From: a virus | Strand: one strand, 5' to 3' | Virus record (IMG/VR): IMGVR_UViG_3300032235_000437 | Location: 16,447 to 80,446 of that record | DNA: 64,000 bases | In this document: piece by piece, positions 2,263-62,478 of the stretch | Layout: the number at the start of each line of letters is the position of its first letter | Numbering within the stretch: the stretch's first letter is position 1 | Translations under genes and position numbers: made by a program | Notes under the pieces: generated by a model | Seen by the model: the letters and a program-made list of their open reading frames with translations, nothing else | What the model was told of the DNA's origin: nothing | The model's database searches: none

Positions 2263-2267
2263 GTGCA

Positions 2268-3962: not shown

Positions 3963-3964
3963 TA

Positions 3965-31252: not shown

Positions 31253-31955
31253 TATTAAACCACTCTAAAACCTTTATGTAATCATCTTGAACATCTACAG
31301 AGATACTGTCTGATATTTCTTGATATGTGCCTATGTTTATACCTGCTACTAAAGCTCGCAGTAGCTCTACACCTTCTACTAACTCTAAGGTAGTAACTGT
31401 ATGCGTATAAAACCGTCTAAGTGCTGACCTAGTAAAGCTAATTATACATAGTTGTTTTTTTAAAGGTATACTACCTCTAAAATTACTGGGACAGCTGCTT
31501 CGTGTTAGATAAAGAAGCCTATTTAGTTCTTCTACTACTTTTACTCTGTTTATATCGTCATACTCAAGTAATTGATACGGCATAACAATATCTGTATTCA
31601 ACAGTTTAGTATTATATATGAGTCTGGTTATTACTGCAGGATCAAGCATAGGCTCATCGCCTTGAATATCTACAATGATGCAGTCTTCTGGTAAGTTTAG
31701 TGATTCAGCAGCTTCTGCTATTCTATCAGTACCGTTTAAATGGCTTCCAGTCTTAACAGTAGATATACCGTAGTTGGTACATACTTCTATTATTCTATCA
31801 GAATCAGTACAAACATATACGGCATCTAACTCTGCACACTTTAAAGCTTGTTGCGCCACTTTTACTATCATAGGTACTTCGCCTATTGGTAGTAGCAACT
31901 TTTCTTTTAGCCTAGTGCTTTCAAGTCTTGCCGGTATTAAGCCATAGATCTGCAT
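31239..31955 (-). CDS. kdsB: CMP-Kdo synthetase-like cytidylyltransferase (KdsB family)
   Basis: 238 residues, the usual KdsB length. It has IPARLESTRLKEKLL (nucleotide loop, normally IPARxxSTRLPxKxL), VCTDSDRI, TGSHLNGTDRIAEAAE, and VDIQGDEPMLDP with the metal-binding Asp. The final SISVDVQDDYIKVLEW also fits (normally VDTPEDL). KdsB joins CTP to Kdo or 8-amino-Kdo to make the activated sugar for lipopolysaccharide or capsule. It overlaps its neighbours at both ends. The KpsS-like transferase in the same cluster could use its product. Confidence 0.88.
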   Translation of the reverse strand: MQIYGLIPARLESTRLKEKLLLPIGEVPMIVKVAQQALKCAELDAVYVCTDSDRIIEVCTNYGISTVKTGSHLNGTDRIAEAAESLNLPEDCIIVDIQGDEPMLDPAVITRLIYNTKLLNTDIVMPYQLLEYDDINRVKVVEELNRLLYLTRSSCPSNFRGSIPLKKQLCIISFTRSALRRFYTHTVTTLELVEGVELLRALVAGINIGTYQEISDSISVDVQDDYIKVLEWFNNGYT

Positions 31956-32739
31956 ATTGTTTTCCCATTAGATTACCTTTTACACTACAGTTTTTGCAAG
32001 AGCTATTAACAGCTCTATTGCCGCGAATTAGCTCTATACGAGTATTAGTAAATTCTTCACCTATCCACACATCACTTATATCATTTATAAGTATATTACC
32101 GAATATTTTTGATTTTTTCCAGTCATTACTACATAGCAGTACATCACCAGTAGTATCTATTACAACTCTATATGATGGAAAATAACAAGGATTTGCTACA
32201 CTTTGTTCCCATAACAATCCGCCTCTATTGTTAAAACCATACTGCTCAAAGTTATCTTCTCCGTTATCGTAATGATCACGTACATGAATGTTAGTAGAAG
32301 CTAGTTTTTGAATTTCTGGATTATTATCATAATCATTAACAATTAACCTAGTTAAGCCAGCAGTAAATAGCTGAGAAGTAGTAAATTTTTTAGATAATAT
32401 AGAGTCACCATTAGTAATTAACTCAACATCAAATACTGATAGTATTTTTATGATTTCTAATATCTTAGGGTGTAGTGTAGGCTCACTGAACCCGCTTAAT
32501 ATGATATAACCCTTAAAAGAGTGACTAACTAATTGTGAAACTAATGTTTGTATAGTATCTATGCTAATATGTTTATTTACATTAGGATATAGACTAGCAC
32601 TATGTCTTGGACAAAAACTACAAGTTCTGTTGCATAATTCTGTAAGATTTATATCTACGGCAGCTAATCCTGGAAGCTTATCATTTCTAATATTACCTAA
32701 AGTTTTTGTTCTAAAGGCTAAGTGTTGTTCTAAGTTCAT
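31921..32739 (-). CDS. radical SAM/SPASM-type enzyme
   Basis: 272 residues. The 4Fe-4S radical SAM motif is C-x3-C-x2-C (LCNRTCSFCPRH) near residues 36-43, followed by LSGFSEPTLHP (GGE-like SAM contact) and ELITNGD. The C-terminal part holds further Cys (NPCYFPSYRVVID, LLCSNDW, CKNCSVKG), as in SPASM/twitch domains binding extra clusters. Related enzymes modify peptides, sugars or cofactors. It overlaps both neighbours (ATGA-type at 32736-32739). Substrate unknown; cassette context suggests a sugar or an amino-acid-derived group. Confidence 0.85.
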   Translation of the reverse strand: MNLEQHLAFRTKTLGNIRNDKLPGLAAVDINLTELCNRTCSFCPRHSASLYPNVNKHISIDTIQTLVSQLVSHSFKGYIILSGFSEPTLHPKILEIIKILSVFDVELITNGDSILSKKFTTSQLFTAGLTRLIVNDYDNNPEIQKLASTNIHVRDHYDNGEDNFEQYGFNNRGGLLWEQSVANPCYFPSYRVVIDTTGDVLLCSNDWKKSKIFGNILINDISDVWIGEEFTNTRIELIRGNRAVNSSCKNCSVKGNLMGKQYADLWLNTGKT

Positions 32740-33608
32740 AATAACTCTTTATTAATTAACGCCATTCTGTAAGTATTATCTACTTTTCTATAACCAAACT
32801 TATCAGTTAGTTTATTGCTTTGTTTAAAAAGCACAAAGTTACCGACGCTTGGTTCAGTGTTATAGTTAGATTCTAAGTACATCTTAGTCTTAAGCATACG
32901 TCTTACTACTGCTGGAGTATCACCAATAAGCTCGCTAACTAGAGTAGGAGCTAAAGAATTGCATACAAAGTTAGATCTATATTCTTGTAGCTTAGCAGTT
33001 ATAGCTACGGAAGCAAAGCAGAATCCAACGCGTAACCCAGCTAGTCCTAAGCTTTTACTAAGTGTTTTAACAATTATAACGTTATCAGGTATGTTGTGAA
33101 GCATAGAGTGCTGAGGATAAAAATCTGCGTAAGATTCATCAATTATACATAACTTATAGCGTTTACTTATTTCAGTTAATTCTAAGCTATAACCATATAG
33201 ACCGCTAGGATTAGCTATATACAGCACTTCATTCGTATCGTTATGTAAACAATCTACAGAGACTGTCCTATACTTCTTTGAATATAGCGTAGCGTATATC
33301 TCCATCATTTCAAAAGTAGGAGTTACTATGCTGATATGCTTAAAAGATAGCGCCTTAAATATGCGCTCTAGTATCTCTGTGGCACCGTACCCTACAGTAG
33401 TACAGCTAATAGGCTTATTATAGTAGTCGCATATAGCTGTGTATAGCGTAAAAGTGTCTGGATAGCTGCTAATGTTAACTGTACTGGCTAATTGCTTAGC
33501 TTTATCTACTATGTACATATCGTAATGAACATTTTTTGCTAAATCTATAGCAGCATTATTCTGCGGAGCTAAGCCTGGACGTGATACTTGTATTTCTAAG
33601 TTTATCAT
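32736..33608 (-). CDS. PLP-dependent aminotransferase, HisC-like
   Basis: 290 residues of fold-type I class I/II aminotransferase related to HisC/CobD: GYGATEILERIFKAL (cofactor phosphate loop), PTFEMMEIYA, YIANPSGLYGYSL, CIIDESYADF (Asp binding the PLP nitrogen and Tyr), and VKTLSKSLGLAGLRVGF with the Schiff-base Lys. It is 50-70 residues shorter than usual HisC, mainly at the C-terminal small domain. It overlaps the sulfotransferase gene by 53 nt. A role in making an amino sugar or amino-acid decoration is inference. Confidence 0.82.
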   Translation of the reverse strand: MINLEIQVSRPGLAPQNNAAIDLAKNVHYDMYIVDKAKQLASTVNISSYPDTFTLYTAICDYYNKPISCTTVGYGATEILERIFKALSFKHISIVTPTFEMMEIYATLYSKKYRTVSVDCLHNDTNEVLYIANPSGLYGYSLELTEISKRYKLCIIDESYADFYPQHSMLHNIPDNVIIVKTLSKSLGLAGLRVGFCFASVAITAKLQEYRSNFVCNSLAPTLVSELIGDTPAVVRRMLKTKMYLESNYNTEPSVGNFVLFKQSNKLTDKFGYRKVDNTYRMALINKELL

Positions 33609-34215
33609 ATAGTATTATATCTCGTTCGTAATAAGAATTTACAAGCTGTTTAGTGCTAGCCGTATAAAAATAATCTATTAAATCTTTTGTAGCTGCGTTA
33701 GAAGAGCTATTTACACACTCTAAGCTACCAAGTGTCTTGTTGAAGTACTTAATGTATAGAACTTGCAACTCTTCAAACAGTGAATCGTATAAAAGCAACG
33801 TAGTGCTAGGTGCTATAAAATCTGATTGTAACAAATTCTGCCATCTATGGTCGTTAATAGTACCTCCACCTTCATATACTAAGTTACTAAATGTGCTAAC
33901 AGATAACTTATGTAACCCTTGCCTGCATCTATATAAGTATAAACTTAATAACCGCTCAACAGGGTTTCTTATCACACAAAAACTATTACAATATTCAGGC
34001 ACAAACCCTAAATTAACTGCTTCGCTCATAGTTATATGAGCTAAACTAGGGTCTGTGCTGCAATTACGTGTCAAAAAATTGTTTTTATATGTAGTATAGG
34101 TTATAACATCTGAATCTGTAGTTAAATCAGACTCAAGTAAGATTTTAGAGACTGCCGTACTAGCGTTTTTAGGTATTTTTATGAATGCTAGATTATAGCT
34201 ACTTAAGTATATCAT
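33556..34215 (-). CDS. sulfotransferase-family protein
   Basis: 219 residues. FIKIPKNASTAVSKIL matches the 5'-phosphosulfate loop (PKxAST/GT) and CVIRNPVERLLSLYLYRC matches the 3'-phosphate-binding RxPxxRxxSxY motif of PAPS-dependent sulfotransferases (Sulfotransfer_2 type). Such enzymes sulfate sugars. It would need host PAPS. It overlaps both neighbours, by 4 and 53 nt. Sulfotransferases are rare in phages outside aquatic ones. Confidence 0.82.
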   Translation of the reverse strand: MIYLSSYNLAFIKIPKNASTAVSKILLESDLTTDSDVITYTTYKNNFLTRNCSTDPSLAHITMSEAVNLGFVPEYCNSFCVIRNPVERLLSLYLYRCRQGLHKLSVSTFSNLVYEGGGTINDHRWQNLLQSDFIAPSTTLLLYDSLFEELQVLYIKYFNKTLGSLECVNSSSNAATKDLIDYFYTASTKQLVNSYYERDIILYDKLRNTSITSRLSSAE

Positions 34216-34775
34216 TCTGGTACGTAGTTAGTCCCATTTGGGTGACGAGTTAGCCAATGATTAACTGTAATCCTATAACTTCCAGTACTTTCAAAGCTGT
34301 GCCAAGTGATGCCATCTATAGGAGCAAAGATTACAGTTCTATTTTCGCGCCAATCTGTAGTTTTAACATACGTTTTATCGCAATCGTACAGCAGTGTGCC
34401 TTTTGAACTACTTGGAGCTATGTATGTAACCGCAGATAACACCTTCCAAGGAGCCTCATCATGCAGTTTATACGAAAAATTACCTAAACATATACTAATA
34501 TCGTAAAAGCTATATAACGAACTATACTTTCTATGGTTAGGGAACAGTTTAAGCAAGCGTTCGTCTATGTTTGCAGATTCTGCAAAAGCGGCTGTAGCTG
34601 GAAATCTACTTTTAAAATCAGGTTCTTGACTTCTTATAATAGTATGATGTGTCAAGTTAGAGATATTGGCAGATACATACCTAGTTAGCTCTAGCTTACA
34701 AGCATTATATAGTGTAGCATGAAAATAATCATCTAATTCTAAATGAGGCCAAGGATTAGTTTGTAAAGTATTCAT
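34212..34775 (-). CDS. 2OG-Fe(II) oxygenase-like protein
   Basis: 187 residues. The start NPWPHLELDDYF is typical of phage prolyl-hydroxylase-like oxygenases. KLHDEAPWKVLSAVTYIAP contains the H-x-D/E iron motif (HDE), and VIFAPIDGITWHSFESTGSYRITVNHWL contains the distal His and the Arg that binds 2-oxoglutarate. These enzymes hydroxylate proteins, sugars or nucleobases. Overlaps both neighbours. Target unknown. Confidence 0.78.
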   Translation of the reverse strand: MNTLQTNPWPHLELDDYFHATLYNACKLELTRYVSANISNLTHHTIIRSQEPDFKSRFPATAAFAESANIDERLLKLFPNHRKYSSLYSFYDISICLGNFSYKLHDEAPWKVLSAVTYIAPSSSKGTLLYDCDKTYVKTTDWRENRTVIFAPIDGITWHSFESTGSYRITVNHWLTRHPNGTNYVPE

Positions 34776-35694
34776 CTATTGTACAGTTTCTATTAAAATA
34801 TTTATCAAAACGAGTGTATAAAATATCGTCAAAAGCAGTAGCCACATCTATAATAGCAGTATTATAAAACCAAGATAGATATTGATATATGTCTTGTTGC
34901 GGTAACTTACGGAATATTACAGAATCTAGATCAGTTACGCTATTACAAAGGTTAGCTATTAAACCATAAGAATAGTCTATGTCATTTCTAAAATAGCTAA
35001 CAGGCTTATCTTTAAGCAGCGCGTATAACCCAACGCCAGATTCAATAGATACTAGAGCGCTACAATGGTCTACTAGAGTATTTGTGTTAGCATCAACGCA
35101 CAATTCGCTATACTTAGACTTATTAGGAATCTTATCCCATTCCTCAAACGGATCAGAACAATCTGTGGGAAAAGGGTGTGCTTTAAATATAACTCTATGT
35201 TTATTACGCTCAGCCCAAGTATTCATATAAGCAACTAGATACTGTTCAGTTCTCATCTCATTTAAAACAACTAATACATAAGGCGTTTCAGGAACATAGC
35301 TATTAGCACTAAGTGCATACTTACTCCAGGATACACTATGTAAATAATCAATAGTACTGTAGTTGGTGTTATGAGTTAGCCAGTATGGTTTAATATCAAA
35401 GTGTCGTACCAATCGTTCTTCGGGAACCAGCTTAAAAAAACAAAATACTGGAGTTCCTTCGCCGTAACTTAAATAACGACCAACTCCAGTATTATAGTAA
35501 TATACTAACTGCCCCGTAAAACTAGCAGACATGTTTTGTACGCTAGACATAAAACATTTTATATGTTTAGCATTAATCCACTTTTCACGCTGATTATTAC
35601 GCTGAATACACCAATCATAGTGATTGACTGTGCGAGTTAAATCCAAAGGCAAAGCGATATCCTTCTGACCAAACGGTATGCCATAAAGGCGCAT
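34756..35694 (-). CDS. capsule-polysaccharide glycosyltransferase-like (KpsS/KpsC type)
   Basis: 312 residues. VIFKAHPFPTD and DHCSALVSIESGVGLYALLKDKPVSYF are the two nucleotide-binding signatures of the Capsule_synth family (KpHP, then StVglEALlhgKPV), which transfer Kdo from CMP-Kdo onto a lipid. That fits the CMP-Kdo synthetase-like gene 3 kb downstream. The start at 35694 overlaps the previous gene by 80 nt, the longest overlap in the window; no better internal start exists before residue 49. Confidence 0.68.
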   Translation of the reverse strand: MRLYGIPFGQKDIALPLDLTRTVNHYDWCIQRNNQREKWINAKHIKCFMSSVQNMSASFTGQLVYYYNTGVGRYLSYGEGTPVFCFFKLVPEERLVRHFDIKPYWLTHNTNYSTIDYLHSVSWSKYALSANSYVPETPYVLVVLNEMRTEQYLVAYMNTWAERNKHRVIFKAHPFPTDCSDPFEEWDKIPNKSKYSELCVDANTNTLVDHCSALVSIESGVGLYALLKDKPVSYFRNDIDYSYGLIANLCNSVTDLDSVIFRKLPQQDIYQYLSWFYNTAIIDVATAFDDILYTRFDKYFNRNCTIDEYFTN

Positions 35695-36127
35695 TTTTAT
35701 CTATTTTAAAAGTTCTAGCTGTCCAACCAATGTCATCTTCGTCGTTATAAACTAGCCCATTTTCTACACTTCTATATCTAAATATGCTACGCTTCTTAGA
35801 GTATATATAGTATGTTCTCATACCTTCTAGATTAGAGTTAGTGTGCCAAGGCATACTAGAATTAGGGGCGTAACAAATAGCATTTGTGCAAGTGTGCGCG
35901 CCTAACAAAGCAGTAGCTTCGGTTAACCGGCTATCATCAAGAGAACATAAATGAACTATGTTAGCAGTAGATTTATGAGGAACGTCTGCTGAAGGTAGTG
36001 CAGTAGCTATAAAATCGTGATATTTAACATTACCAACATGCGGTAATGTACTACCTTGTACGTAATCAGAGATTATAGTCTGTAGTATCTCAGTAACTGA
36101 TAAATTAACTGTTATTTTCATTTTCAA
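35615..36127 (-). CDS. 2OG-Fe(II) oxygenase/cupin-like protein
   Basis: 170 residues. The core reads CYAPNSSMPWHTNSNLEGMRTYYIYS, then GWTARTFKIDKNAPLWHTVWSEGYRFAFGF: a His-containing double-stranded beta-helix pattern with a distal H and an Arg, as in a group of phage 2OG-Fe(II) proteins. The usual H-x-D/E is H-T-N here, so iron binding may be altered. First gene of the eight-gene cassette; overlaps the fibre-associated gene by 23 nt. Confidence 0.55.
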   Translation of the reverse strand: MKMKITVNLSVTEILQTIISDYVQGSTLPHVGNVKYHDFIATALPSADVPHKSTANIVHLCSLDDSRLTEATALLGAHTCTNAICYAPNSSMPWHTNSNLEGMRTYYIYSKKRSIFRYRSVENGLVYNDEDDIGWTARTFKIDKNAPLWHTVWSEGYRFAFGFNSHSQSL

Positions 36128-47913: not shown

Positions 47914-48247
47914 ATTTTAGTGCGTCTACATTACTATCATACCAGTAAATGTAAAACTTATTATTAAATCCTACTAAGAATTTATAATTAGAAAAAGCAG
48001 CACTAGCTTTATCTTCAGAGCTAGGAATTGGATTATCTGATCCAGGGTGTGAATGAAAAATACCCCATATATTACCGTCATGTCTTACTAAATCAGCTGG
48101 ATCTAAAAAGAATGTGACCTTTGGCTTATCACTTATATTCTTACACGGAATATAGTTAAAGTCGTTGGTTATAATTCCTACACACTCTTTAGGGTATTCG
48201 TGTAGAGAATGCTTATTCATATCAGCTAATAATTTTACGTAGTCCAT
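47873..48247 (-). CDS. JAB/MPN (Mov34) metallopeptidase, tail-tip type
   Basis: 124 residues. ECVGIITNDFNYIPCKNIS is the family start, and GIFHSHPGSDNPIPSSED is the JAMM zinc site (H-x-H, then S-x2-D). In lambda this domain forms the N-terminal half of gpK; here it is a separate gene encoded after two NlpC/P60 genes. It may process a tail protein during assembly. Overlaps the upstream gene by 13 nt. Confidence 0.88.
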   Translation of the reverse strand: MDYVKLLADMNKHSLHEYPKECVGIITNDFNYIPCKNISDKPKVTFFLDPADLVRHDGNIWGIFHSHPGSDNPIPSSEDKASAAFSNYKFLVGFNNKFYIYWYDSNVDALKFEKFEESHLVSNH

Positions 48248-48657
48248 CTATATAATCCGGTAGTATATTGTTTGTAGTAGCTGCCATAAGGGCTAACCCA
48301 GCTAGGTCTATCAATCATAGTGTGTATGACTTTATTATTTTCTAAATACATAGCACAATGATTAGTAATATTGGTAGATCCTATACTCATTAGTATAAAG
48401 TCAAACTTTTTAGGCTCTGATACACGTTTCCAGCTAGAGTCTGCAAGAGCAGATTTTTCAAAGATTGGATCACTTGTTTTATTGTACCAATCGTCATCTA
48501 CTATATTGCAGCGATCAAAAGATAGATAGGGAATTTCTATACCAGTCTCTTCATTATAAATATAGCGGCACAGATTAAAACAATCCATGCCGCTTTTAGG
48601 ATCATTTCCTAAATGTTTATAAGGAATATTTAAATACTTATCATACCATTTTGTCAT
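48235..48657 (-). CDS. NlpC/P60-like peptidase, second copy
   Basis: 140 residues. YKHLGNDPKSGMDCFNLCRYIY holds the catalytic Cys in the NlpC/P60 context (GxDCxxLxxxxY), and NHCAMYLENNKVIHT gives the His. It overlaps the first NlpC/P60-like gene by 17 nt. With the JAB protein it equals a split lambda gpK. Expected role: local cleavage of peptidoglycan peptide bonds at the tail tip during entry. Confidence 0.8.
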   Translation of the reverse strand: MTKWYDKYLNIPYKHLGNDPKSGMDCFNLCRYIYNEETGIEIPYLSFDRCNIVDDDWYNKTSDPIFEKSALADSSWKRVSEPKKFDFILMSIGSTNITNHCAMYLENNKVIHTMIDRPSWVSPYGSYYKQYTTGLYRWTT

Positions 48658-49030
48658 GACGATATATCGCGTGTAAATGTTCCATCCAGTAATCGGATAG
48701 GCTATCTACTCGTGAAGTATTCCCCTCTTCTACGTGCAGCATTTTATTCGGTTTAATATATAATCCGAAGTGAATCAATAAGTTTGATTTCTTTGACTTG
48801 AAACTAATTAAATCATAATTCTTAGCATCCGTCAATGAAACTTTTTTACCATATTTAGATGCCCACTCGTCTAAGAATTCTACAGTATATTTTTTCATCC
48901 ATAATCTGGAATGAGGGTATGCAGGTAAATTGAAACTACAATCTAATTCATTTTCATAAAACTGTTGTACAAGAGTTACACAGTCATAGCTACCATAGCA
49001 ATGTTTAATACCTAGATAAGAAGTTATCAT
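48641..49030 (-). CDS. NlpC/P60-like peptidase, first copy
   Basis: 129 residues. YGSYDCVTLVQQFYENEL gives the Cys motif, LIHFGLYIKPNKMLHVEEG the His strand, and a WMKKY-containing loop precedes it. It is more compact than the second copy and diverged from it. It overlaps the gpL-like gene by 4 nt (ATGA). Tail-tip peptidoglycan hydrolase is the likely role; one of the two copies may be assembly-only. Confidence 0.78.
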   Translation of the reverse strand: MITSYLGIKHCYGSYDCVTLVQQFYENELDCSFNLPAYPHSRLWMKKYTVEFLDEWASKYGKKVSLTDAKNYDLISFKSKKSNLLIHFGLYIKPNKMLHVEEGNTSRVDSLSDYWMEHLHAIYRHDKMV

Positions 49031-51289: not shown

Positions 51290-51706
51290 TTAATCAAAAG
51301 ATTCTTTTACGTCAAAAGAAACTGTATAGTAGTTTTGTAGAGCATTAGCTCCGGTAGAAAGTACGTGATCAATTTTAAGCGAACCCTCGAATCGAACACG
51401 CACTGTTCCAGATTCATTTATATGTGCTAGATCAAGATTAAACGATGAAAAGCTACCGCTACGTTCACGATAAAAACGCTCAATAGCTGTTTTTTCTAAG
51501 CCTGTCACGTTAGTATATTTTAAGCTAAACATACGCTTACCGCGTCTAGAGCGAAGCCTACGCTTTTCATAACCGCTCTCACTTTCAAAAATGATCGTAT
51601 TAAACTCTTGGCTAGACGTAAATCCGCTATCAGGCTTTACGTCTGCCATAGAAGTAAAAGTGTCAGTAGTAAAAAGACCTACTGCATCGTTAGGATATAT
51701 AGCCAT
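51290..51706 (-). CDS. gpM-like minor tail protein
   Basis: 138 residues. FNTIIFESESGYEKRRLRSRRGKRMFSLKYTNVTGLEKTAIERFYRERSGSFSSFNL is typical of tail-tip connector proteins of the lambda gpM/DUF2460-like type. It lies between the tape measure and the gpL-like gene, as in lambda. It joins the tail tube to the tip complex. TAATG-type 1-nt overlap with the tape measure stop. Confidence 0.78.
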   Translation of the reverse strand: MAIYPNDAVGLFTTDTFTSMADVKPDSGFTSSQEFNTIIFESESGYEKRRLRSRRGKRMFSLKYTNVTGLEKTAIERFYRERSGSFSSFNLDLAHINESGTVRVRFEGSLKIDHVLSTGANALQNYYTVSFDVKESFD

Positions 51707-54700
51707 TATAGACCTCCACGACCTCGTAGTGTTCTACGAATAGGCCCGTTATTTGCAATGTCGCGCATAACAATATCAACAACATACTTTTCACCATCAA
51801 AACGTGGAGCACTTGCATCAGCTTGCTTAGGTGATCCTTCATTTGTTACGTTTACGAATACGTTACCATTTCCGCCAGCACCACCAGTTGCATTCATGGC
51901 TTGAAGAGCTGGCATGCCTATCTTTTCTGCAGACTGCTTGCGAATGACAAATTCGCCAGGCTCAAGCATAGCAGGTATTCTATCGCGATTTAGGGACGCA
52001 GAGACTGCGGCACCGCCCTGTGCAAGATGTACTAATCCGCCTTGTGAGAAGCCTATTAAGCTGCTAAAGAAACCGCCGATTCCTTTAAACAGACCAGATA
52101 GTATACCGCCCTCACCCATTAAGCTTTTAAACAGATTAGATACAAAACCGTTCTGCCCAAAGATATTAGTGAATAGTGAAGTGATTTGATCAAAGAATCC
52201 ACCTAGTACGCCTTCAGTACTACTTGTTAGGCTATCAGCAGCTGCTTTACCGCCTTTACTATCTTTAATAGATTCAGGTGTTCCTGGTACGGCATCTGGT
52301 ACTATTCCAAACATATCTGCAGGACCGCTTACAACACTAACGAGTAACGCTCCATTCTTAACCTGTGCGTTCTCAATACCGGTACGCATATTTTCAACAC
52401 CTAACATACTAAATAAGTTGTCAGTCAAAAATCCTGATAGTGGGTCTGCAACAGTAGTTTTAAAGAAGTCTTGTTGAATAGACTTAAATAGGTTGCTCAT
52501 TATATCGCCAATATTACCCTCGCCGTAGAAGATAAGATTATTTAGCCCCATAATAGCGTTTTCAATATTACCTTTAATGGAATTAAATAGTGCTTGTAGT
52601 TTTTCTTCGATATAGTTAAGTTTTTTATCAGCCTCACTACCAGCATCTGCAGCATCTTTCAGACGTTTTTCTGCTTCTTCTTGTGATATACCTTTTTCTT
52701 GTGCTAACAGAGTAGCTCTACGAACTAAATCATCTGCCTTAGCTCTATAGTTTGCATCTAATAACTCTTGTTCTTTAGCACTAGCATCTTCTGCTGCTTT
52801 TAAAGAACTAGCACGTAGAGTCTCAGCAGTAGCATTTGCTTGAGCTAATGCTACGTTAGATTTATTTACAGCTACATCTATAGCATCTATTTCCTCTATA
52901 AGTACTTCTGTACCCATAGGACCTATAGCTACTGCTTTAGTACCAGAAATCTGTTGCTCTTGAAAAGCAAAACGTTGTATATTAGTTCCTATGCCTAATA
53001 AATCAGCTACAGGACCAAAAGCTGACGCAAGTGTTTGTGCTGCTGCGTACGCAGCATCAACTATAGCTCTGCCAGCTCCGTTTCCGCCTTCTATTATAGC
53101 TTTATTCATCTCTCCAGAGATAGCGCTATAAGTCTCTGCAGCGGTTACTAATAACCCATATTCAGCATCTATTTTAGCTTTTGTTTGGTCTGCTTCTAGG
53201 TTTATTTTATCTATAGTAGCTTGCTGTTGTTGTCTAATCAGCTCAGATTCTTTTAAATAACGCTCAGCGCCTGCTACTAGCTCAGCATCTAAAGCTTGCT
53301 TACGTAGACCTAAAATATCTTGTTCTATTTTATTAATTTGCTCTGCACCAGCTACTGGTTCGATTTTTTTATTTTCGACTTGCAGTTCTATTAGCTTAAT
53401 TTGGTTTTCTCTAAAGGCTTGTTCGAACTCAAAAGCAGCTTGTTCACCCTGAGCTTTGATATCCATCATATCAATTTCAAATTTTATTGCATCTAGATTG
53501 CTTTGAGTAGCTAGGTCTGTAATCTGCTGTTGTAAGTCCGCAGTCATATTATTTAAGTTAGTTGTTACAGATTCAGCAGTACTTAACAGTTGATCTGCTA
53601 ACTGTCTAGTAATATTAGTACGTACGTTAAGTAGAGTATTATATTGCTCAGCTAGCGTTAGGTCTTCTTGATTTAGACTAACTACTCCGCCTAGTAAGTT
53701 TTTTATCTCTTGGTTGTACTCAGTCTGTTTAGCAAAGCTTTCTGTAGTCATATTAGAATATAATAAGATTAAAGATTCTGCATCAGCCCTACCCTTAACC
53801 GCATTTTTTACATTAGCCTCTTGTTGCGCTAATTTATTTACGCTAGCCACGCTATTATTTATCATAGCATTTACTTCTCTATACTGAGCAAGTTGTCTAT
53901 TTTTCTCGCCTATAATATAGTTTCCAGCAGCATCTAAATCACCTATTTTAGGGGCAGGCTCATTTACTAAATCACCAAAAGTTTTTTTGATTTTATCTAA
54001 AACTTTTAGCTGTTCTTCATAAGGTCTAGTTACAGCTCTCACTGCCTCTAAGCGCTGACCCTCTAGAGTTATGTTTTCTTGTAGTTTTGTTTGTTGTTGT
54101 GTAAGAGCAGCTATGCTATTATCTATCTCAGTTAAGTCTAGCTCTGGTGCTAATCTCAATAACTCTGCTCTATCAGCTTTTAACTTTGCTAGCTGCGCCT
54201 CTACTGTAGCAGCTTCTGTTACAGAACGCTTATACGCAGATACTACAGCGCCCTCAGTTTGAGCAAGTGTTTCAAGATTTAGCGTATTTGATACCACACC
54301 AGAATATAGTGTAGATAACGCACTCTCAAATTGTAGAGTAGATATTTGAGCTGTATACAAGCTAGAAGCAAAATCAGTAAAGCTATTTTTCAGATTATTT
54401 ATACTGCTCTCAGCTTTTGTAGAAGTTATAATTTCTAGTTCTGCAATAGTAGCCTCTAAAGCATCTTTACGGCTACTGATCTCACTTATTACTGCTTGTT
54501 GAAATGGCTTCGCTCTATTTAGTTTTATGGAATCAAGCTTAGATTCCGCAGCCGCTAGTTCAACGTTTATATCTGCTAATTGAATTCTGCTAGCCGCTAG
54601 CTGGTCAGTTAGCTGTTTCATACTTGGCGGAGGAGGTATTTCAGTAATAGCTCCATAAGTAGAAGACATAGCTTCAGCACTTTGCATAAACGGATCTATT

Positions 54701-57174
54701 TCCATAGTAGGGAACTTTGCCTCACGTACTGATGCTAGCACAGCATCAATAGAGTCTATAACTTTTAATACCTCGGCCTGATCAATAACAGTAAGTGTTA
54801 TAGGTATATCTAATTTTAATGTAGGATCTAGACTAATCGTGGAATCATCTACAGTTATACCAAACTTATCCTTAAGCTGGGCCAAGTCTATTCCCAGTCT
54901 CTCTGCAATTTGTTGAGTTTGTTGAATATTATTTAAATTATTAGTAAGCTCTACAGCTAAAGCTTGCTGTATTTCATAATATTTTCTACCCTCAAAAGAT
55001 AGGTTTTTTGCAGCTCCAGCTTGTTCTTCTATCTTTTGAAGTGCTATTTCTAACTGAGCACCCTGCTCTCCGCCAAAAATACCAGCACCGTACTGTTCTT
55101 GTAGATTTTGTTTAATATCTGGAGTAAGTACAGCATCTGCTTTCAAAAATTTACTTATACCAAAGCCTATAGCAGAACCTACTAATAAACCAACTCCAGC
55201 GCCTACAGGACCTAGGACTGCCCCAGCAGTAGCACCGAATTTTGCGCCTACAGCAGCACCAGCAGCAACACCTACTGCTGCACCTAAACTTTTACCTAGT
55301 AATGCTCCAGTACCAGTACCAACAACATTATCACTAAGTTGTTCGCCAAAGGTTTTACTACCGCTTTGTGCGGCTTCTGTAAGCGCAGCAGTTACTTCTT
55401 TAATTAAATTTTCTTTTGTCTTAACAACATCAATTTCAACACCAAGAAATTTGGTGCTGAATCTAAATTCTTCTATGTTCTTAAGTGCTGGATCTACTGA
55501 TTCTAGTTTTTGCAGAGCCTCACCAGAAATAGATAATAAACCTTTTTCTATACTTTGACTAGCTTTAGAACTAAAAAAGGTTTTAATCAGATTACCAAAT
55601 TTAGCTAATACAGCGTTGTATTCATCTTGCTTACCTATAGCAGAAGCAATAGTAGAGCCTAATAAAGATATTATAGAGATAGCTGATAAAGCACTGCCCG
55701 CAAAACCTACTAAGTTTGCAGCTGAGGTTGCTACGCTTGATCCTAGACTTATAAACCCTGTAACAGCTGTTGATGCTAATTTAGCTAAACCAGAAGTTGC
55801 GCCTGCTGCTGAGGTTTGTAGAGTCTTTAAAGACGTAGTTGTTTGTTTTATTCTAGTATCTGTTGTTTCTAAAGCTTTAGTTTGCTTTACTATGGCATCG
55901 GTGTTTCGAGCAATCTCTATCATAGTAGACTTATACTGAGCGCTTGCAGCGTCAAGACCAGCAGTATTTTGCTTAAGTCTTTGGTTTTCGCTATCTAAGT
56001 CGCGTAAACGCGCTTCCTCAGAAGCTCTAATACTTTTAAGCTTAGCTTCTCGCTCAGATAATAATTTTATGCCTTGTTGTATTTCTGAACCAGTAAGTGT
56101 TCTAGTCTTAGCAGCCTCTTTTAAAGCTTTTAACTGGGCTTGGGATTCGCCACCAACACCTTTTTGTAAATTAATCCCAGCTATGTCTTGTTGAGCAGCT
56201 TCTCTTGCTTTTTTAGCAGCAGCACTATATCTTAAGAAAAAGTTTTCTACTGTAGCGCCTCTACGTACAGCAGTATCAGCAAACTCATCTAGTTTTCCTT
56301 TAAGTACTGTAATACCTTTAGCAGCCACTAGACCTGCCACAGTGCCTACTGCAGCAAATGCACCTGCTAAGTTATTTGTTAGGTATGAGGCTAGCGGAGC
56401 AAGTGTCTGAGCAATGAACCCACCTATCTGTGTAGCTATATCAAGAATTTTAACGCCAAAAGCTTCTATCTGCTCCGCAGTAGTTGGTAACGTAGTGTTA
56501 ATAGAAGCAAACTTGCGTTCTCCTTCAGTAATAACAGCGTTAACAAAAGCTTGTCTGCGCTCAAATTCAGTTAGAGCAAGTCTGCTTTTACCTAGTTGTT
56601 CAGCATACGCAGCAGTTGCTGGTTCAATTTTAGTAAAGATACCAAGTTCGTCTAATAGTTCTGTTTCTAATTTAGAAGAACCACGAACTACACGAGTGAA
56701 AGAATCAGATAAATCACGGCCTAGTGCGCGAGAAGCTTTAAGAGCTACACCAGCAAGACCTTCAATTTGCTCAGTGTTGAATCCGGCGCTAAGAGAGAGG
56801 TTAATTTGCTGAGCTGTTTCAGCAATAGTAAGCTGTCCTTTAGTTATATCTCTAACACTAGTTAGCAGATCACTTGCATTCTGCCCAAAAGTATTAGCTA
56901 AAGCTCCTAAGCCCTCAAGGGTCTGTAGAGCACGAGCACTACGAGCAAGAGCATCAAATGACGCTTGTAAAGCAAATACTGTAGCAGCAGCACCAGCATA
57001 AGCGCCTACTAACCCGCCAAGACCGCTAGCCTGCGCAGCAAACTGCCTTCCACTACCTGCACTACTCTGACCTAGTCTTGTAGTAGCACGAGTAAGGTTA
57101 TCTACCTCTTTAGCAGCTTTATCAGCACCTTCAGTTTTAAAGTTAGTATTTATTATATTGGTTATACTAGCCAC
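51706..57174 (-). CDS. tail tape measure protein
   Basis: 1822 residues. Long helical regions run through it, with an N-terminal LTRATTRLGQSSAGSGRQFAAQASGLGG and hydrophobic stretches (AASLVGFAGSALSAISIISLLG; LGKSLGAAVGVAAGAAVGAKFGATAGAVLGPVG) likely to insert in membrane. The C-terminal part has FSQGGLVHLAQGGAAVSASLNRDRIPAMLEPGEFVIRKQSAEKIG, the classic phage tape-measure ending. Length predicts a tail of roughly 250 nm using about 1.5 angstrom per residue. It follows the frameshifted chaperone genes directly. No peptidoglycan hydrolase domain is seen. Confidence 0.95.
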   Translation of the reverse strand: MASITNIINTNFKTEGADKAAKEVDNLTRATTRLGQSSAGSGRQFAAQASGLGGLVGAYAGAAATVFALQASFDALARSARALQTLEGLGALANTFGQNASDLLTSVRDITKGQLTIAETAQQINLSLSAGFNTEQIEGLAGVALKASRALGRDLSDSFTRVVRGSSKLETELLDELGIFTKIEPATAAYAEQLGKSRLALTEFERRQAFVNAVITEGERKFASINTTLPTTAEQIEAFGVKILDIATQIGGFIAQTLAPLASYLTNNLAGAFAAVGTVAGLVAAKGITVLKGKLDEFADTAVRRGATVENFFLRYSAAAKKAREAAQQDIAGINLQKGVGGESQAQLKALKEAAKTRTLTGSEIQQGIKLLSEREAKLKSIRASEEARLRDLDSENQRLKQNTAGLDAASAQYKSTMIEIARNTDAIVKQTKALETTDTRIKQTTTSLKTLQTSAAGATSGLAKLASTAVTGFISLGSSVATSAANLVGFAGSALSAISIISLLGSTIASAIGKQDEYNAVLAKFGNLIKTFFSSKASQSIEKGLLSISGEALQKLESVDPALKNIEEFRFSTKFLGVEIDVVKTKENLIKEVTAALTEAAQSGSKTFGEQLSDNVVGTGTGALLGKSLGAAVGVAAGAAVGAKFGATAGAVLGPVGAGVGLLVGSAIGFGISKFLKADAVLTPDIKQNLQEQYGAGIFGGEQGAQLEIALQKIEEQAGAAKNLSFEGRKYYEIQQALAVELTNNLNNIQQTQQIAERLGIDLAQLKDKFGITVDDSTISLDPTLKLDIPITLTVIDQAEVLKVIDSIDAVLASVREAKFPTMEIDPFMQSAEAMSSTYGAITEIPPPPSMKQLTDQLAASRIQLADINVELAAAESKLDSIKLNRAKPFQQAVISEISSRKDALEATIAELEIITSTKAESSINNLKNSFTDFASSLYTAQISTLQFESALSTLYSGVVSNTLNLETLAQTEGAVVSAYKRSVTEAATVEAQLAKLKADRAELLRLAPELDLTEIDNSIAALTQQQTKLQENITLEGQRLEAVRAVTRPYEEQLKVLDKIKKTFGDLVNEPAPKIGDLDAAGNYIIGEKNRQLAQYREVNAMINNSVASVNKLAQQEANVKNAVKGRADAESLILLYSNMTTESFAKQTEYNQEIKNLLGGVVSLNQEDLTLAEQYNTLLNVRTNITRQLADQLLSTAESVTTNLNNMTADLQQQITDLATQSNLDAIKFEIDMMDIKAQGEQAAFEFEQAFRENQIKLIELQVENKKIEPVAGAEQINKIEQDILGLRKQALDAELVAGAERYLKESELIRQQQQATIDKINLEADQTKAKIDAEYGLLVTAAETYSAISGEMNKAIIEGGNGAGRAIVDAAYAAAQTLASAFGPVADLLGIGTNIQRFAFQEQQISGTKAVAIGPMGTEVLIEEIDAIDVAVNKSNVALAQANATAETLRASSLKAAEDASAKEQELLDANYRAKADDLVRRATLLAQEKGISQEEAEKRLKDAADAGSEADKKLNYIEEKLQALFNSIKGNIENAIMGLNNLIFYGEGNIGDIMSNLFKSIQQDFFKTTVADPLSGFLTDNLFSMLGVENMRTGIENAQVKNGALLVSVVSGPADMFGIVPDAVPGTPESIKDSKGGKAAADSLTSSTEGVLGGFFDQITSLFTNIFGQNGFVSNLFKSLMGEGGILSGLFKGIGGFFSSLIGFSQGGLVHLAQGGAAVSASLNRDRIPAMLEPGEFVIRKQSAEKIGMPALQAMNATGGAGGNGNVFVNVTNEGSPKQADASAPRFDGEKYVVDIVMRDIANNGPIRRTLRGRGGL

Positions 57175-57480
57175 TTATTTTGCTCTCTTTGCTTTAGCTA
57201 AGCCTTCTTGCTCTTTTTGTTTTTGTCTGTAGTATTTGCCTAGTTCATCTTCGGCAACTTTTAATAGTTCGAATACCTCGCGCCTATCATCTATTTCATA
57301 TATATCCATTATAGCAGCTAATCCGCTATAATCTTTTCCCATCCAAGTACCGCTCATACCCTCCCACTTATCGGGTAGCACATTGAGTAGTATTAGAGCA
57401 TACTGAGCACTAGTATCTAGCGACGAAGCATCTATAGGCATCTCTTCTTCTGAAGGTTCCCAGCCCATTTGCTCACACAT
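57175..57480 (-). CDS. tail assembly chaperone T domain (expressed by -1 frameshift, GT fusion)
   Basis: 101 residues as shown, but its frame is open upstream through 57543 where it meets a -1 slippery site in the G gene. No ribosome-binding site precedes the ATG. The product is therefore most likely a G-T fusion of about 265 residues (143 from G, 21 from the junction, 101 here). The T part (CEQMGWEPSEEE, QYALILLNVLPDKWEGMSGTWMGKDYSGLAAIMDIYEI) binds tape measure and tail tube in lambda. It ends 1 nt before the tape measure ATG. Confidence 0.85.
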   Translation of the reverse strand: MCEQMGWEPSEEEMPIDASSLDTSAQYALILLNVLPDKWEGMSGTWMGKDYSGLAAIMDIYEIDDRREVFELLKVAEDELGKYYRQKQKEQEGLAKAKRAK

Positions 57481-57504
57481 AGCTAGATATTGCTCGGTAG
57501 TAAC

Positions 57505-57549
57505 ACCTCCGCCATTTAATGTTTGGCGGAGGTAGTCTGTTAGTTTTTT
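57505..57549 (-). other. programmed -1 ribosomal frameshift signal (slippery site plus hairpin)
   Basis: On the minus strand: slippery heptamer A AAA AAC (57549-57543), in frame GTA AAA AAC TAA with the stop directly after it; 9-nt spacer; hairpin ACCTCCGCC / GGCGGAGGT (57533-57505) with a perfect 9-bp stem and 11-nt loop. After slipping back one base the next codon is CTA and the frame runs into the T domain. Same architecture as lambda G/GT, with an E. coli-type A AAA AAC heptamer. Confidence 0.92.
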
Positions 57550-57971
57550 ACAGTTTCTTCCTTTTTCTTAAGTGAGAACTGCTCAAAGTCATTTAGCGTA
57601 TCAGTAACAAACTGATCGAAGACTGGTGAATTTTTTAGTAGGTCAATAGCATCTTCTTCGCTAAAGTCTACAGCTTCTTCTGGGTTCATACCAGAAATGT
57701 CAACTGGAAGTAGCGAAGGTAGGTGTTTGATTTTAAGACCTGTCCAACCAGCAATTGCGCGCTCAGCGTAGTTCTCTAAGAACTTAGCGGTATCAACTTC
57801 TTCTTCGCGTTGGCGAGTGCGCTTGTTGAACTTATAGGTTAGACTAGCGTTGCGAATTTTTAATAGGTCTTCGCGTGACACAAAGCGTAGGTTAATTTTA
57901 AACCCAGCAATATCTGGGAATTCTACCCAGGTAGAAGTGTCTTTAACCATCATAGATTTTAGTTTACTCAT
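57540..57971 (-). CDS. tail assembly chaperone G
   Basis: 143 residues. FPDIAGFKINLRFVSREDLLKIRNASL, AERAIAGWTGLKIKHLPSLLPVDI and FSEEDAIDLLKNSPVFDQFVTDTLNDFEQF match siphovirus tail assembly chaperones. These coat the tape measure before tube polymerisation. It ends with KKKEETVKN over the slippery heptamer, and the stop follows at once. Its leader contains the structured element at 57993-58060. Confidence 0.85.
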   Translation of the reverse strand: MSKLKSMMVKDTSTWVEFPDIAGFKINLRFVSREDLLKIRNASLTYKFNKRTRQREEEVDTAKFLENYAERAIAGWTGLKIKHLPSLLPVDISGMNPEEAVDFSEEDAIDLLKNSPVFDQFVTDTLNDFEQFSLKKKEETVKN

Positions 57972-58106: not shown

Positions 58107-59381
58107 TTACTTATCAGCAACAATTAGAACTTCACCGCCTTGACCTCTTGAAGCATTTGGTTCTTGAGCCATGAAGTTAACGCTTACCGCAAGTACATCT
58201 TCAACAACTACCTGTGGGAATTCAAATTGAACAGCAGGCATTGAGAATTGTACGAATGGAGCAGTTGTTCCACCGATATTTAGGTTTGCGTTAGAAGTTT
58301 GTGCAGAAGAAGTACGAGAATCTTGTGCAATATTTCTTAAGAACTGGCTAGACTGGCTATCGCCAGCACGTAGATACATAGTAGCAGAGCCTGTTACAGC
58401 GCGAGTACCAGTAAAGTTACCAATTGGTGAGTTTAGTGCAGTTAATTCTTCTGGAGTTAGGTAAGTAATGTTATTGTTATAATCAAATGTTAGTGATGTT
58501 ACTGGGAATGTATAAGTATTGCCTGCAACACCAGCCGCAGAAGCATGCTGGAAGCTGATAGAGCTAAGTCTGTTCTTAATGAAAGAGTTAGTTGCTATAG
58601 CGCCTGCTACGTTCATTTGGTTGTATGGGTGATAAGAAGCAGCAGCACTAAGCGCAAAAGCGTTAGAGTTAGCTACTACTGGAGTTCCACCAGCGTTTAG
58701 TACACCACCGAATACTGATACAGCGTTATTACGAGGTACGCCTGTAAGTTCTCTCATAGTAGTACCGTTACCAGTCCATGTTACTGTAGCGATTTCTTCA
58801 ATACCAGCGTCAACTGTAGCTTGGTTTACAGCAGCGTTAGATACTTGGTAAATAACGTTATCAAGCTTGAAGTATAGGTATTGATCTTCTTGAGCTACAG
58901 CAAAGTTAGAACGGCTGCTGTGTGAACCAGTTCCTGCAGCTACGTTTGTAGTTGCAAGTCTTCCGCCGGTTGCCCATACAGACTGTTCTGCGCTACCAGT
59001 AGATGCGCGAGTATTTGATACAAGCGCCTGCCACATGAACCAGTCAGCAAGAGGTTTAACGTTACCGCTTGGGCTAGTTGCTCCGCCAGTACCGCCAGCA
59101 GTAGCTCCTGTTTCTACGCCTGTAGGACGTAGGTAAACTTGGAAGTTCCACTCAACTGGGTTAATAGCTGTGTTAAAACGCTGTTGAGAGCGATCTGGGC
59201 TTAGACCGCTTTCTAAAGACGTAATGTCTTGTGTTGCTGAGGAAGCACTTACTGCAAAACCAGCTAATACTTCAAGTTTCCAAGTATTAGAAGGTGTCAT
59301 CGCTGTTACTGCTGCACCATTTAGCAGGTCAACAGTAGAAAAGAAAACCTCAGAGTTTCTTTGTAGATTAAGAGATGTCAT
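58107..59381 (-). CDS. major tail tube protein
   Basis: 424 residues. The body is Thr/Ser/Asn/Ala-rich beta structure (FSTVDLLNGAAVTAMTPSNTWKLEVLAGFAVS, SQQRFNTAINPVEWNFQVYLRP). The end FEFPQVVVEDVLAVSVNFMAQEP matches tail-tube proteins of siphoviruses. It sits between the terminator-type gene and the assembly chaperones, the canonical place. AAGGAG precedes ATG 59381. It is longer than lambda gpV (246), probably with an extra surface domain. Confidence 0.85.
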   Translation of the reverse strand: MTSLNLQRNSEVFFSTVDLLNGAAVTAMTPSNTWKLEVLAGFAVSASSATQDITSLESGLSPDRSQQRFNTAINPVEWNFQVYLRPTGVETGATAGGTGGATSPSGNVKPLADWFMWQALVSNTRASTGSAEQSVWATGGRLATTNVAAGTGSHSSRSNFAVAQEDQYLYFKLDNVIYQVSNAAVNQATVDAGIEEIATVTWTGNGTTMRELTGVPRNNAVSVFGGVLNAGGTPVVANSNAFALSAAASYHPYNQMNVAGAIATNSFIKNRLSSISFQHASAAGVAGNTYTFPVTSLTFDYNNNITYLTPEELTALNSPIGNFTGTRAVTGSATMYLRAGDSQSSQFLRNIAQDSRTSSAQTSNANLNIGGTTAPFVQFSMPAVQFEFPQVVVEDVLAVSVNFMAQEPNASRGQGGEVLIVADK

Positions 59382-59849: not shown

Positions 59850-61144
59850 AATGATGTATTACCTCTTACTATATTAAATTTTTGAGCATATAGTGATTGT
59901 GCTACTTCTCTAATAGCCGTCTCTACTTGTAGGTCTGGTCTATAACCATAGTCCTTTAGTGATGCATATAACGGATTATATAAGTACTGAAGAGTTCTAG
60001 TACGATAATTTGCAAATACTCTAACGCTACCTCTAAAACGACCACTGCGCTCTTTTAGCTCTGGAGGTTCTGGTTCGCCTATTCGTAGCATAGTTTGACC
60101 TAGACGCCTTTGCGTAAGTACAGTCCATTGAACACCTGAGATAAAAGCTTGTTTAGAAGATTGTTTTTCCGTGCTAGTAAGGTTAGTAGCTTTTACTATA
60201 AATGTATCAGACGGTCTAACTTTAATACTTTTAGTAATTTCCGCTCCAAAAACTTGACTACCTTTTAATACAGGAAGCATATCTATAGTAAGTGCTCTTG
60301 TTTTTGACGCTATTTTTACTTTTACAACCTCAGAAGTCGTAGTTTCTAAAAATTTTAAATAATCCTTGTCTAAAGCATTAAATATCTGTTTTTGAAATGA
60401 ATCATTTATGGAAATTATTATAGCGTTATCTTCTATAGTGGCTTTAAAATTACCAGCATTAAACTGGCTTAACGGAAATTGTAAACCAATAAGCCTAGTA
60501 CCGCTAGTTTTAGCACCGTTTGCATCTAGAGAATAAACATTGTTAAGTATCATAGTACTAGCTTTAGAATAAAATAGTTGTCTCAAGCGCGGTTCCTTAG
60601 ACATATAATAGTTAAAAACCCTATTAGTAACTGCTTTAGTACTTCTATTTTTAGCTTGTCCGTTTCTTTGGTCTGTAAAAAAAGGATCCAAGTCTACTAT
60701 GTAACCAGTTTTATTAACTCCTAACAATTTTTGTGGTAACTCAGCACCTAGTATATCTTCTTGACCTTCTACTTTGTATATACTTTCTCTCTTAGCAGTA
60801 CCCGTACCTAAAGTAATTTGGCCAATCTTAGTACCTTTATATGCGCCTGCTAAGGCTTTAAATTCTACAGACCGAATATCAGAAGATTCAGTAACTTCTT
60901 GCTTAAATAGCTCTAAAACTGGAGAAGAAGGGCTTAGTATAAAGTCAGTTACCTGACTCTGTCCTAGCTTACCTTGCACTAAGTTCGCTTTTAATAGTCT
61001 AGATGTTTTCTGCTCTAAATATCGCTGTATTCTATCAGCAGCTACTTTATTTTTATTAGCTAGCGCATTAATATAAGATCTGCTCAGCGAGTTAAACTCA
61101 GGTATACCTGTTATGTCTATAGACACTAATCTTATATTAACCAT
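59846..61144 (-). CDS. head-tail joining/neck protein
   Basis: 432 residues. The last 70 residues (SGRFRGSVRVFANYRTRTLQYLYNPLYASLKDYGYRPDLQVETAIREV) match phage head-tail completion proteins encoded between connector and tail terminator. The large middle region is unknown. ATG-TAA 1-nt overlap with the connector gene. Probably a neck or tail-completion component by order (MCP, connector, this, terminator, tube). Confidence 0.6.
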   Translation of the reverse strand: MVNIRLVSIDITGIPEFNSLSRSYINALANKNKVAADRIQRYLEQKTSRLLKANLVQGKLGQSQVTDFILSPSSPVLELFKQEVTESSDIRSVEFKALAGAYKGTKIGQITLGTGTAKRESIYKVEGQEDILGAELPQKLLGVNKTGYIVDLDPFFTDQRNGQAKNRSTKAVTNRVFNYYMSKEPRLRQLFYSKASTMILNNVYSLDANGAKTSGTRLIGLQFPLSQFNAGNFKATIEDNAIIISINDSFQKQIFNALDKDYLKFLETTTSEVVKVKIASKTRALTIDMLPVLKGSQVFGAEITKSIKVRPSDTFIVKATNLTSTEKQSSKQAFISGVQWTVLTQRRLGQTMLRIGEPEPPELKERSGRFRGSVRVFANYRTRTLQYLYNPLYASLKDYGYRPDLQVETAIREVAQSLYAQKFNIVRGNTSL

Positions 61145-62478
61145 TAATCAATAATCCTATAAAGGTCTAGTATACGACGAATATGTGGAGGGAAGTTTCC
61201 TGCTAGCGGAAACTGATCGCCACGCTCGCCCTCAAAGCTGAATCCTTTTTTCTCTTGATCCTGCTTATAAAGTAACTTAACATAATCTATAGTAGCTACT
61301 TGTAAGTCTAGAGGTACTGATCCAGCCTCATAACCAGCGCGGTAAGTTACTTCTACAGCGCTAGGGAAAGGTTGAAAAGCCTGAGGACCAGATAGAGTTA
61401 GAGCTGGATATGATTTTCTAATAGAAGTAAAATTACCAGTAACGCCTAAGCTGCCAGTATCTTTAGTAATCTCGCCTGTATCCCTTGCAAAGTTATATTC
61501 TGCAGCCTTAGAGTGTACATCTTTAAACTGAGTAGAGTTATGTTTTTCATCAAAATGTACAAGCATAGCTGTATCAGTATCTGTGCGGAATCTAAAATTA
61601 GAAGGAGTAAAGCTATTAGTATAACGCTGAACAGTAGATACTCTAATTTCATCCATATAACCTTTAAAGGTGCTGCCTATAGTTATATTATTAGAGAAAG
61701 ATAGAGAATCAACGGTGTAAGCACTATTTGCTATCTGAGTACCGTTATAGAATAAGTATAGTCTTTCTGTCTCGTAGTTTCTAGTAACAGCTACATGTGC
61801 CCAACGTTTCTTATTAAACTGTTGAGCTTCTATGCTAGTGTTTGCTCCGGTAACGGTTGTAGTACTACCTGCGACATTTGTTGTAAAAGCTAATCCATAT
61901 TGATTAGCTAGGCTAAATCTCATGTAGTTAGAGTTGTTAGTAGAGATCTCAAATAATACATTATTTCGTAAAATTGGCTCATCTACTTTTACATACATTT
62001 CTATAGTAAAATCTGACTTATCTAACTGTAGTTGTTCTGGTACAGTTGATGAGTATATATAGCTAGTTTCATCTAGCTCAAGCGCTGATTTACCAAAACG
62101 CTTGACTTTTGTAGTATTTTTAGCATTGCCGCTAGCTGTGAAAGATACGCTCTGGCTGCTAGTATGTACGGGAGCACCTGTCACTGCGGGGTCAGCTAAT
62201 AGAATATTTTCTGTGCCATTAAATTCTGATACTTGGTATACGCTAGATAGCGGTAGTCTGCTTACAAATACAGAAGACACGCCTCCGTCAAAAATCTCAA
62301 CATAGTCATTAGCTAGTACCTCTTGACCTATGTAGTGCTCGATAACGCCGCTAGCATAAGAGATAATATTAGACAGCCTAGCGTCTTGAGTATTACTAGA
62401 AATGCTCAAATAATCTTTAACTTGAGCAAGAGTTATATATGTGTTCTTTCCTAAGTTTTCTTCAAAACTATCTGTCAT
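61144..62478 (-). CDS. gp6-type head-tail connector with inserted LamG/concanavalin-like domain
   Basis: 444 residues, more than four times a usual connector. Residues 1-95 (YITLAQVKDYLSISSNTQDARLSNIISYASGVIEHYIG) and about 340-444 (VEVTYRAGYEAGSVPLDLQVATIDYVKLLYKQDQ) form one gp6/gp15-type connector. Residues about 105-330 are a concanavalin-like (LamG) sandwich: FTIEMYVKVDEP, WAHVAVTRNYETERLYLFYNGTQIANS, IGSTFKGYMDEIRVS, AMLVHFDE. The insert should loop out as a sugar-binding decoration at the neck. Confidence 0.82.
   Translation of the reverse strand: MTDSFEENLGKNTYITLAQVKDYLSISSNTQDARLSNIISYASGVIEHYIGQEVLANDYVEIFDGGVSSVFVSRLPLSSVYQVSEFNGTENILLADPAVTGAPVHTSSQSVSFTASGNAKNTTKVKRFGKSALELDETSYIYSSTVPEQLQLDKSDFTIEMYVKVDEPILRNNVLFEISTNNSNYMRFSLANQYGLAFTTNVAGSTTTVTGANTSIEAQQFNKKRWAHVAVTRNYETERLYLFYNGTQIANSAYTVDSLSFSNNITIGSTFKGYMDEIRVSTVQRYTNSFTPSNFRFRTDTDTAMLVHFDEKHNSTQFKDVHSKAAEYNFARDTGEITKDTGSLGVTGNFTSIRKSYPALTLSGPQAFQPFPSAVEVTYRAGYEAGSVPLDLQVATIDYVKLLYKQDQEKKGFSFEGERGDQFPLAGNFPPHIRRILDLYRIID

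What the first reader, a model, noticed from the sequence alone, without database searches (positions are those of the whole stretch)
57175..57971. Programmed -1 frameshift joining the tail chaperones G and GT
Seen: heptamer A AAA AAC in the correct phase directly before the G stop codon, 9-nt spacer, then a perfect 9-bp GC-rich hairpin; the -1 frame is open through the T domain, whose own ATG lacks a ribosome-binding site. Known: lambda and most long-tailed phages make G and GT this way. Two separate genes would be the wrong annotation.
Basis: partly seen in the sequence, partly recalled or inferred. Interest (0 to 1): 0.7.

Follow-up and report, generated by a model that had tools for sequence, protein, structure and literature searches.

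The report
Tail-chaperone frameshift in uncultured T5-like phage
A virus of bacteria makes two versions of a tail-building helper protein by having some ribosomes slip back one letter at a marked spot; this is a known trick and well supported here, but distant relatives such as phage T5 appear to do the same job by slipping forward instead.

Summary
On the minus strand, gene G (57971-57540) ends in A_AAA_AAC directly before its TAA. A 9-nt spacer and a very stable hairpin follow, and the -1 frame is open for 122 codons of tail-chaperone T domain up to the tape-measure gene. Heptamer, phase and TAA are identical in all 59 distinct relatives first compared. The hairpin is far stronger than synonymous recoding predicts (mean z -4.2; neighbouring controls +0.6 to -1.3). 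T's own ATG has no ribosome-binding site. Best explanation: a programmed -1 ribosomal frameshift making G and GT, as in lambda; phage phiCbK has the same heptamer. For this window that is a new member of a known kind.

The wider family is less ordinary. The homologous G/T pair of T5-like phages has T in the +1 frame, with an in-frame UUU_CGN at G's invariant phenylalanine; a published genome note says the T5 chaperone lacks a predicted frameshift signal. Another uncultured lineage uses -1 A_AAU_UUU plus a hairpin at that same codon. A tree needs one change of direction and two of signal type. All of this is inferred from sequence; no protein was observed.

The parts
57540..57971 (-). gene G: tail assembly chaperone, 143 aa, 0 frame (range includes stop)
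   Evidence: PHROG 313 'Tail assembly chaperone' E 1.5e-15; homologous to the T5 chaperone
57543..57549 (-). slippery heptamer A_AAA_AAC, in phase
   Evidence: identical in 59/59 distinct relatives although AAC is only 26% of other Asn codons in these G genes
57540..57542 (-). G stop codon TAA, directly after the heptamer
   Evidence: conserved 59/59
57534..57542 (-). 9-nt spacer (includes the stop codon)
57505..57533 (-). stimulatory hairpin: ACCTCCGCC(A) / (T)GGCGGAGGT, 9 bp plus one A-U, 9-nt loop
   Evidence: -20.7 kcal/mol, z -5.9; synonymous-recoding control in 59 relatives, mean z -4.2
57175..57543 (-). T domain in the -1 frame, 122 codons plus stop; GT = complement(join(57543..57971, 57175..57543)), base 57543 read twice, 265 aa
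   Evidence: PHROG 3914 'tail assembly chaperone' E 4.1e-15; frame open and conserved from the heptamer on
51706..57174 (-). tape measure protein, 1822 aa; GTG start directly abuts the T stop
   Evidence: PHROG 3779 E 1.4e-31; N-terminal part similar to T5-like tape measure proteins
58107..59381 (-). major tail protein, homologous to T5 tail tube protein pb6
   Evidence: PHROG 3575 E 3.6e-46; PDB 7qg9 chain F, E 4.7e-25

Best explanation
The region encodes one gene with two products. Most ribosomes read G and stop at the TAA at 57542-57540. A minority pause on A_AAA_AAC against the hairpin 9 nt downstream, slip back one base, and read on through T to make the 265-aa GT fusion. By analogy with lambda, G and GT coat the tape measure protein and the T part recruits the major tail protein. 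Shown from sequence: the elements, their phase, their conservation, constraint on the hairpin beyond the coding sequence, and family membership. Inferred: that slippage occurs, its efficiency, and the roles of G and GT in assembly.
For: Elements and phase. Hairpin z -5.9. Best-folding of 65 in-phase heptamers in the window. Heptamer plus TAA identical in 59/59 distinct relatives; AAC 59/59 against 26% AAC elsewhere (relatives share descent, so the naive probability is only indicative). Hairpin more stable than synonymous recodings in 59/59 (mean z -4.2), with controls elsewhere in G and T from +0.6 to -1.3; in several relatives the 3' arm has moved by 3 nt and the stem still forms. The -1 frame protein is conserved from the heptamer on, before any start codon. 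No Shine-Dalgarno before the internal ATG in 63/63 against 62/62 for G. Chaperone families and position before the tape measure. PHROG 313 itself spans a G part (positions about 12-141) and a T part (about 170-258). Published precedents: lambda (PMC5009743) and phiCbK AAAAAAC (PMC3556154).
Against: No protein or reporter data. A_AAA_AAC is less shift-prone than A_AAA_AAG in E. coli (PMC5009743), and the host, its tRNAs and the frameshift level are unknown. No upstream Shine-Dalgarno-like stimulator is conserved: 36 of 59 lack one.
Confidence: 0.95

Rival explanations
1. G and T are two separate genes, with T started independently at the ATG at 57480.
For: Gene callers would report it so: a 101-aa ORF starts at that ATG.
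Against: No Shine-Dalgarno before that ATG in any of 63 relatives; G has one in 62 of 62. The roughly 20 codons between the G stop and the ATG are conserved in the T frame. It gives no reason for an invariant in-phase heptamer and hairpin.
Confidence: 0.02
2. The frame change is made by RNA polymerase slippage on the A6 run rather than by the ribosome.
For: The heptamer holds six consecutive A.
Against: Six A is short for polymerase slippage (general knowledge). A conserved hairpin at a fixed distance fits ribosomal stimulation. The sister lineage with T in the same frame has A_AAU_UUU, without a long homopolymer.
Confidence: 0.02
3. The hairpin is a terminator or a switch that hides the GGAGG in its 3' arm, unrelated to frameshifting.
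For: The 3' arm holds GGAGGT, a Shine-Dalgarno-like string.
Against: No U-run follows. GGAGG lies about 25 nt from the ATG, too far. The hairpins of the sister -1 lineage have other sequences (AGAGCAAG/CTTGCTCT), and hairpins are absent as a group from the +1 lineages.
Confidence: 0.01

Closest known systems
Caulobacter phage phiCbK gp93/gp94 (PMC3556154; JX100813)
   Same: A_AAA_AAC directly before the G TAA, -1 frame T domain starting L-T, before the tape measure gene; annotated as a programmed frameshift
   Different: G and T sequences barely related (profile score about 10 bits for G, none for T); GC-rich; no conservation analysis of its hairpin was made here
Phage lambda G/GT
   Same: Gene position, one short and one extended chaperone, -1 frameshift near the end of G (PMC5009743)
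   Different: Lambda's heptamer is different (G_GGA_AAG, from general knowledge); no sequence relation was tested
T5-like phages (Demerecviridae) tape-measure chaperone pair, PHROG 313 / 3914
   Same: Homologous G and T proteins (tblastn E down to 7e-17 and 5e-15), same gene position, homologous tail tube protein
   Different: T lies in the +1 frame; in-frame UUU_CGN near the end of G; no conserved hairpin

Membership tests
phage tail-assembly chaperone G/GT genes expressed by programmed -1 frameshift | tandem G and T ORFs between major tail protein and tape measure gene | tested here: met
phage tail-assembly chaperone G/GT genes expressed by programmed -1 frameshift | G and T belong to tail-chaperone protein families | tested here: met
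   PHROG 313 E 1.5e-15 and PHROG 3914 E 4.1e-15
phage tail-assembly chaperone G/GT genes expressed by programmed -1 frameshift | X_XXY_YYZ heptamer in phase inside the overlap, -1 frame open through T | tested here: met
phage tail-assembly chaperone G/GT genes expressed by programmed -1 frameshift | signal conserved in relatives beyond coding need | tested here: met
   heptamer 59/59; hairpin against synonymous recoding
phage tail-assembly chaperone G/GT genes expressed by programmed -1 frameshift | GT fusion made at low level and needed for tail assembly | not testable with these tools
   needs mass spectrometry, reporters or mutants
dnaX-type site with upstream Shine-Dalgarno-like stimulator | conserved Shine-Dalgarno-like sequence about 10 nt upstream of the heptamer | tested here: not met
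   AAGGA is present in the window, but 36 of 59 relatives have no such motif
Demerecviridae-type (T5) chaperone pair | homologous G and T proteins | tested here: met
Demerecviridae-type (T5) chaperone pair | T in the +1 frame with in-frame UUU_CGN at the invariant Phe | tested here: not met
   the window has T in -1 and no such site

The most novel reading that the evidence does not exclude
One homologous tail-chaperone family has changed the direction and the signal of its programmed frameshift. T5-like phages and an uncultured lineage use +1 at UUU_CGN on G's invariant Phe codon. A sister group uses -1 at A_AAU_UUU on that same codon plus a hairpin. The window's lineage uses -1 at A_AAA_AAC plus a hairpin, moved 11 codons downstream to the stop. 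This would also supply a frameshift for T5, reported to lack a predicted signal.
Probability: 0.85. Interest if true: 0.65.

Novelty: new member of a known kind. Interest (0 to 1): 0.5.

Why it matters
For this window the result corrects an annotation: one gene with two products, not two genes. The comparison matters more. It gives a traceable case in which the need for a low level of a GT fusion was kept while the decoding signal, and the direction of slippage, changed. It also yields a specific, easily tested prediction for phage T5: a +1 shift at UUU_CGU near the end of its tape-measure chaperone. UUU_CGN is known as a +1 motif in plant amalgaviruses and influenza A PA-X (PMC5052127), and UUU_Ynn is described as prone to +1 shifting in bacteria (PMC5009743). 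I found no held paper tying UUU_CGN to a phage, but subscription papers, including Xu et al. 2004, were not available.

Tried and rejected
Upstream Shine-Dalgarno stimulator as in dnaX: not conserved. Rfam: no match anywhere in the window. DNA-level relatives among named phages: none. A family-wide alignment was too diverse for a pattern scan, so clade-wise alignments and a divergent single protein were used instead. PDB search with the G profile gave only one weak match, to an unrelated-looking entry. Two key papers are not held. In the survey the split between T5-like and second uncultured +1 sequences was made by overlap length, which mislabels a few T5-like and Vibrio-like rows as 'C' (for example L177, L203); this does not affect the direction or signal counts. 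Aeromonas records L012, L166, L169 have a disrupted G and were left out.

Full report
Observation. On the minus strand, gene G runs from 57971 to its TAA at 57542-57540. The seven bases before the stop, 57549-57543, are AAAAAAC, read in the G frame as ..A AAA AAC. Nine bases later a stem forms between ACCTCCGCC (57533-57525) and GGCGGAGGT (57513-57505). The predicted fold has 10 pairs, -20.7 kcal/mol, z -5.9. Slipping back one base gives CTA ACA GAC TAC (L-T-D-Y) and an open frame of 122 codons ending at 57175. The tape measure gene starts with GTG at the next base. Among 65 in-phase X_XXY_YYZ heptamers in the window's larger ORFs this is the best-folding one; its -1 ORF is 122 codons, against at most 24 among the other 14 best-folding.

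What it is. G matches PHROG 313 and T matches PHROG 3914, both tail assembly chaperones. The genes on either side are a major tail protein and a tape measure protein. The major tail protein is homologous to T5 tail tube protein pb6, and the top listed named-phage matches of the polymerase, capsid and tape measure are T5-like phages at low identity. The record is an 80,446-base uncultured virus; no close DNA relative is in the phage collection. The host is unknown.

Conservation. In 59 distinct relatives from viral contigs the ten bases AAAAAACTAA are identical. AAC makes up 26% of other Asn codons in those G genes, and AAA 73% of Lys codons. The rows are related, so the naive product of probabilities is only indicative. 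The -1 frame protein is conserved straight from the heptamer on.

The hairpin. Recoding the first 15 T codons synonymously and refolding gives a mean z of -4.2, with 59 of 59 below -1. Eight neighbouring T windows give +0.6 to -0.4 and eight G windows 0.0 to -1.3. In relatives such as L004, L006, L074 and L108 the 3' arm sits three bases earlier and still pairs. The structure is therefore under selection beyond the protein.

Alternatives. No Shine-Dalgarno sequence precedes the internal T ATG in 63 relatives, while G has one in 62 of 62 scored. Independent start of T, polymerase slippage and a terminator or switch role are all poorly supported (see rivals). I put the -1 ribosomal frameshift at 0.95. 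What is not shown is the protein itself, its level and its need in assembly.

Known kind. Lambda-type G/GT frameshifting is textbook and widely conserved (PMC5009743). Phage phiCbK is annotated with the same AAAAAAC heptamer (PMC3556154), directly before the G stop as here. The window is therefore a new member of a known kind.

The wider family. Homologous G and T proteins occur in about 900 T5-like phage records. In the 15 with an intact G that I read first, T lies in the +1 frame and G has an in-frame TTT CGT or TTT CGA within 30 nt of its stop, inside the stretch where both frames are open. A survey of about 290 loci classed 146 distinct junctions: 63 with -1 A_AAA_AAC (window lineage), 71 with +1 UUU_CGN (T5-like phages and a second uncultured lineage), and 12 with -1 A_AAU_UUU (or UUC). 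The UUU of the last two types is the same invariant Phe codon of G. In the rows of the second +1 group the Arg codon at the site is CGN in 39 of 39, although AGA is 159 of 177 Arg codons upstream in those genes. Downstream hairpins stand out in the two -1 groups (mean z -3.4 and -2.3) and not in the two +1 groups (-0.2 each).

Coding test in T5-like phages. Between the G stop and the annotated T ATG, 13 distinct T5-like sequences differ from T5 by 47 synonymous and 8 non-synonymous codon changes in the T frame, against 10:50 and 2:56 in the other frames. That stretch is thus translated in the T frame, and no ATG, GTG or TTG opens it in T5 (sequence). A frameshift is the simplest explanation; +1 at UUU_CGN is preferred, and -2 at the same place is not excluded by sequence alone. 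A genome note on a T5-like Klebsiella phage states that, as in T5, no frameshift signal was predicted (PMC6256483).

History. A tree of 80 G+T rows with the signal region cut out needs one change of direction and two changes of signal type; the two -1 groups together are one side of a branch with support 100/99, and the window lineage is nested within them. The root is not known, so the order of change is open, although a +1 ancestor with a switch at the shared Phe codon is the reading that looks simplest to me.

Score. The finding as given deserves a low to middling interest because the kind is well known. The family comparison raises it to 0.5.

Noticed in passing
L159:1586-2032 (phage T5) and T5-like loci L009-L014, L160-L170: T5-like phages carry in-frame TTT_CGT/CGA near the end of G with T in the +1 frame, and the 'intergenic' stretch before T's ATG evolves as T-frame coding sequence: a likely unrecognised +1 frameshift.
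   Followed up: yes
L201, L209, L211, L212, L217, L222, L249 and related loci: Uncultured sister lineage with -1 A_AAU_UUU at the invariant Phe codon of G and a hairpin that often contains the G stop codon.
   Followed up: yes
57174-57177: The tape measure start codon directly abuts the T stop (TAA GTG); in 34 of 57 scored relatives a start codon follows the T stop directly. Translation of the tape measure may be coupled to ribosomes that have frameshifted.
   Followed up: partly
61144-62478: Head-tail adaptor protein (connector and head-completion matches at both ends) that appears to carry a laminin-G/lectin-like domain in its middle.
   Followed up: no
30815-36127: Cluster of surface-sugar type genes: cytidylyltransferase, radical SAM/SPASM, aminotransferase, sulfotransferase, capsule-synthesis-like, methyltransferase; further epimerase and glycosyltransferase genes at 1204-5961.
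   Followed up: partly
48235-49030: Two adjacent small ORFs that look like paralogous NlpC/P60-type peptidases (read by eye, not tested).
   Followed up: no
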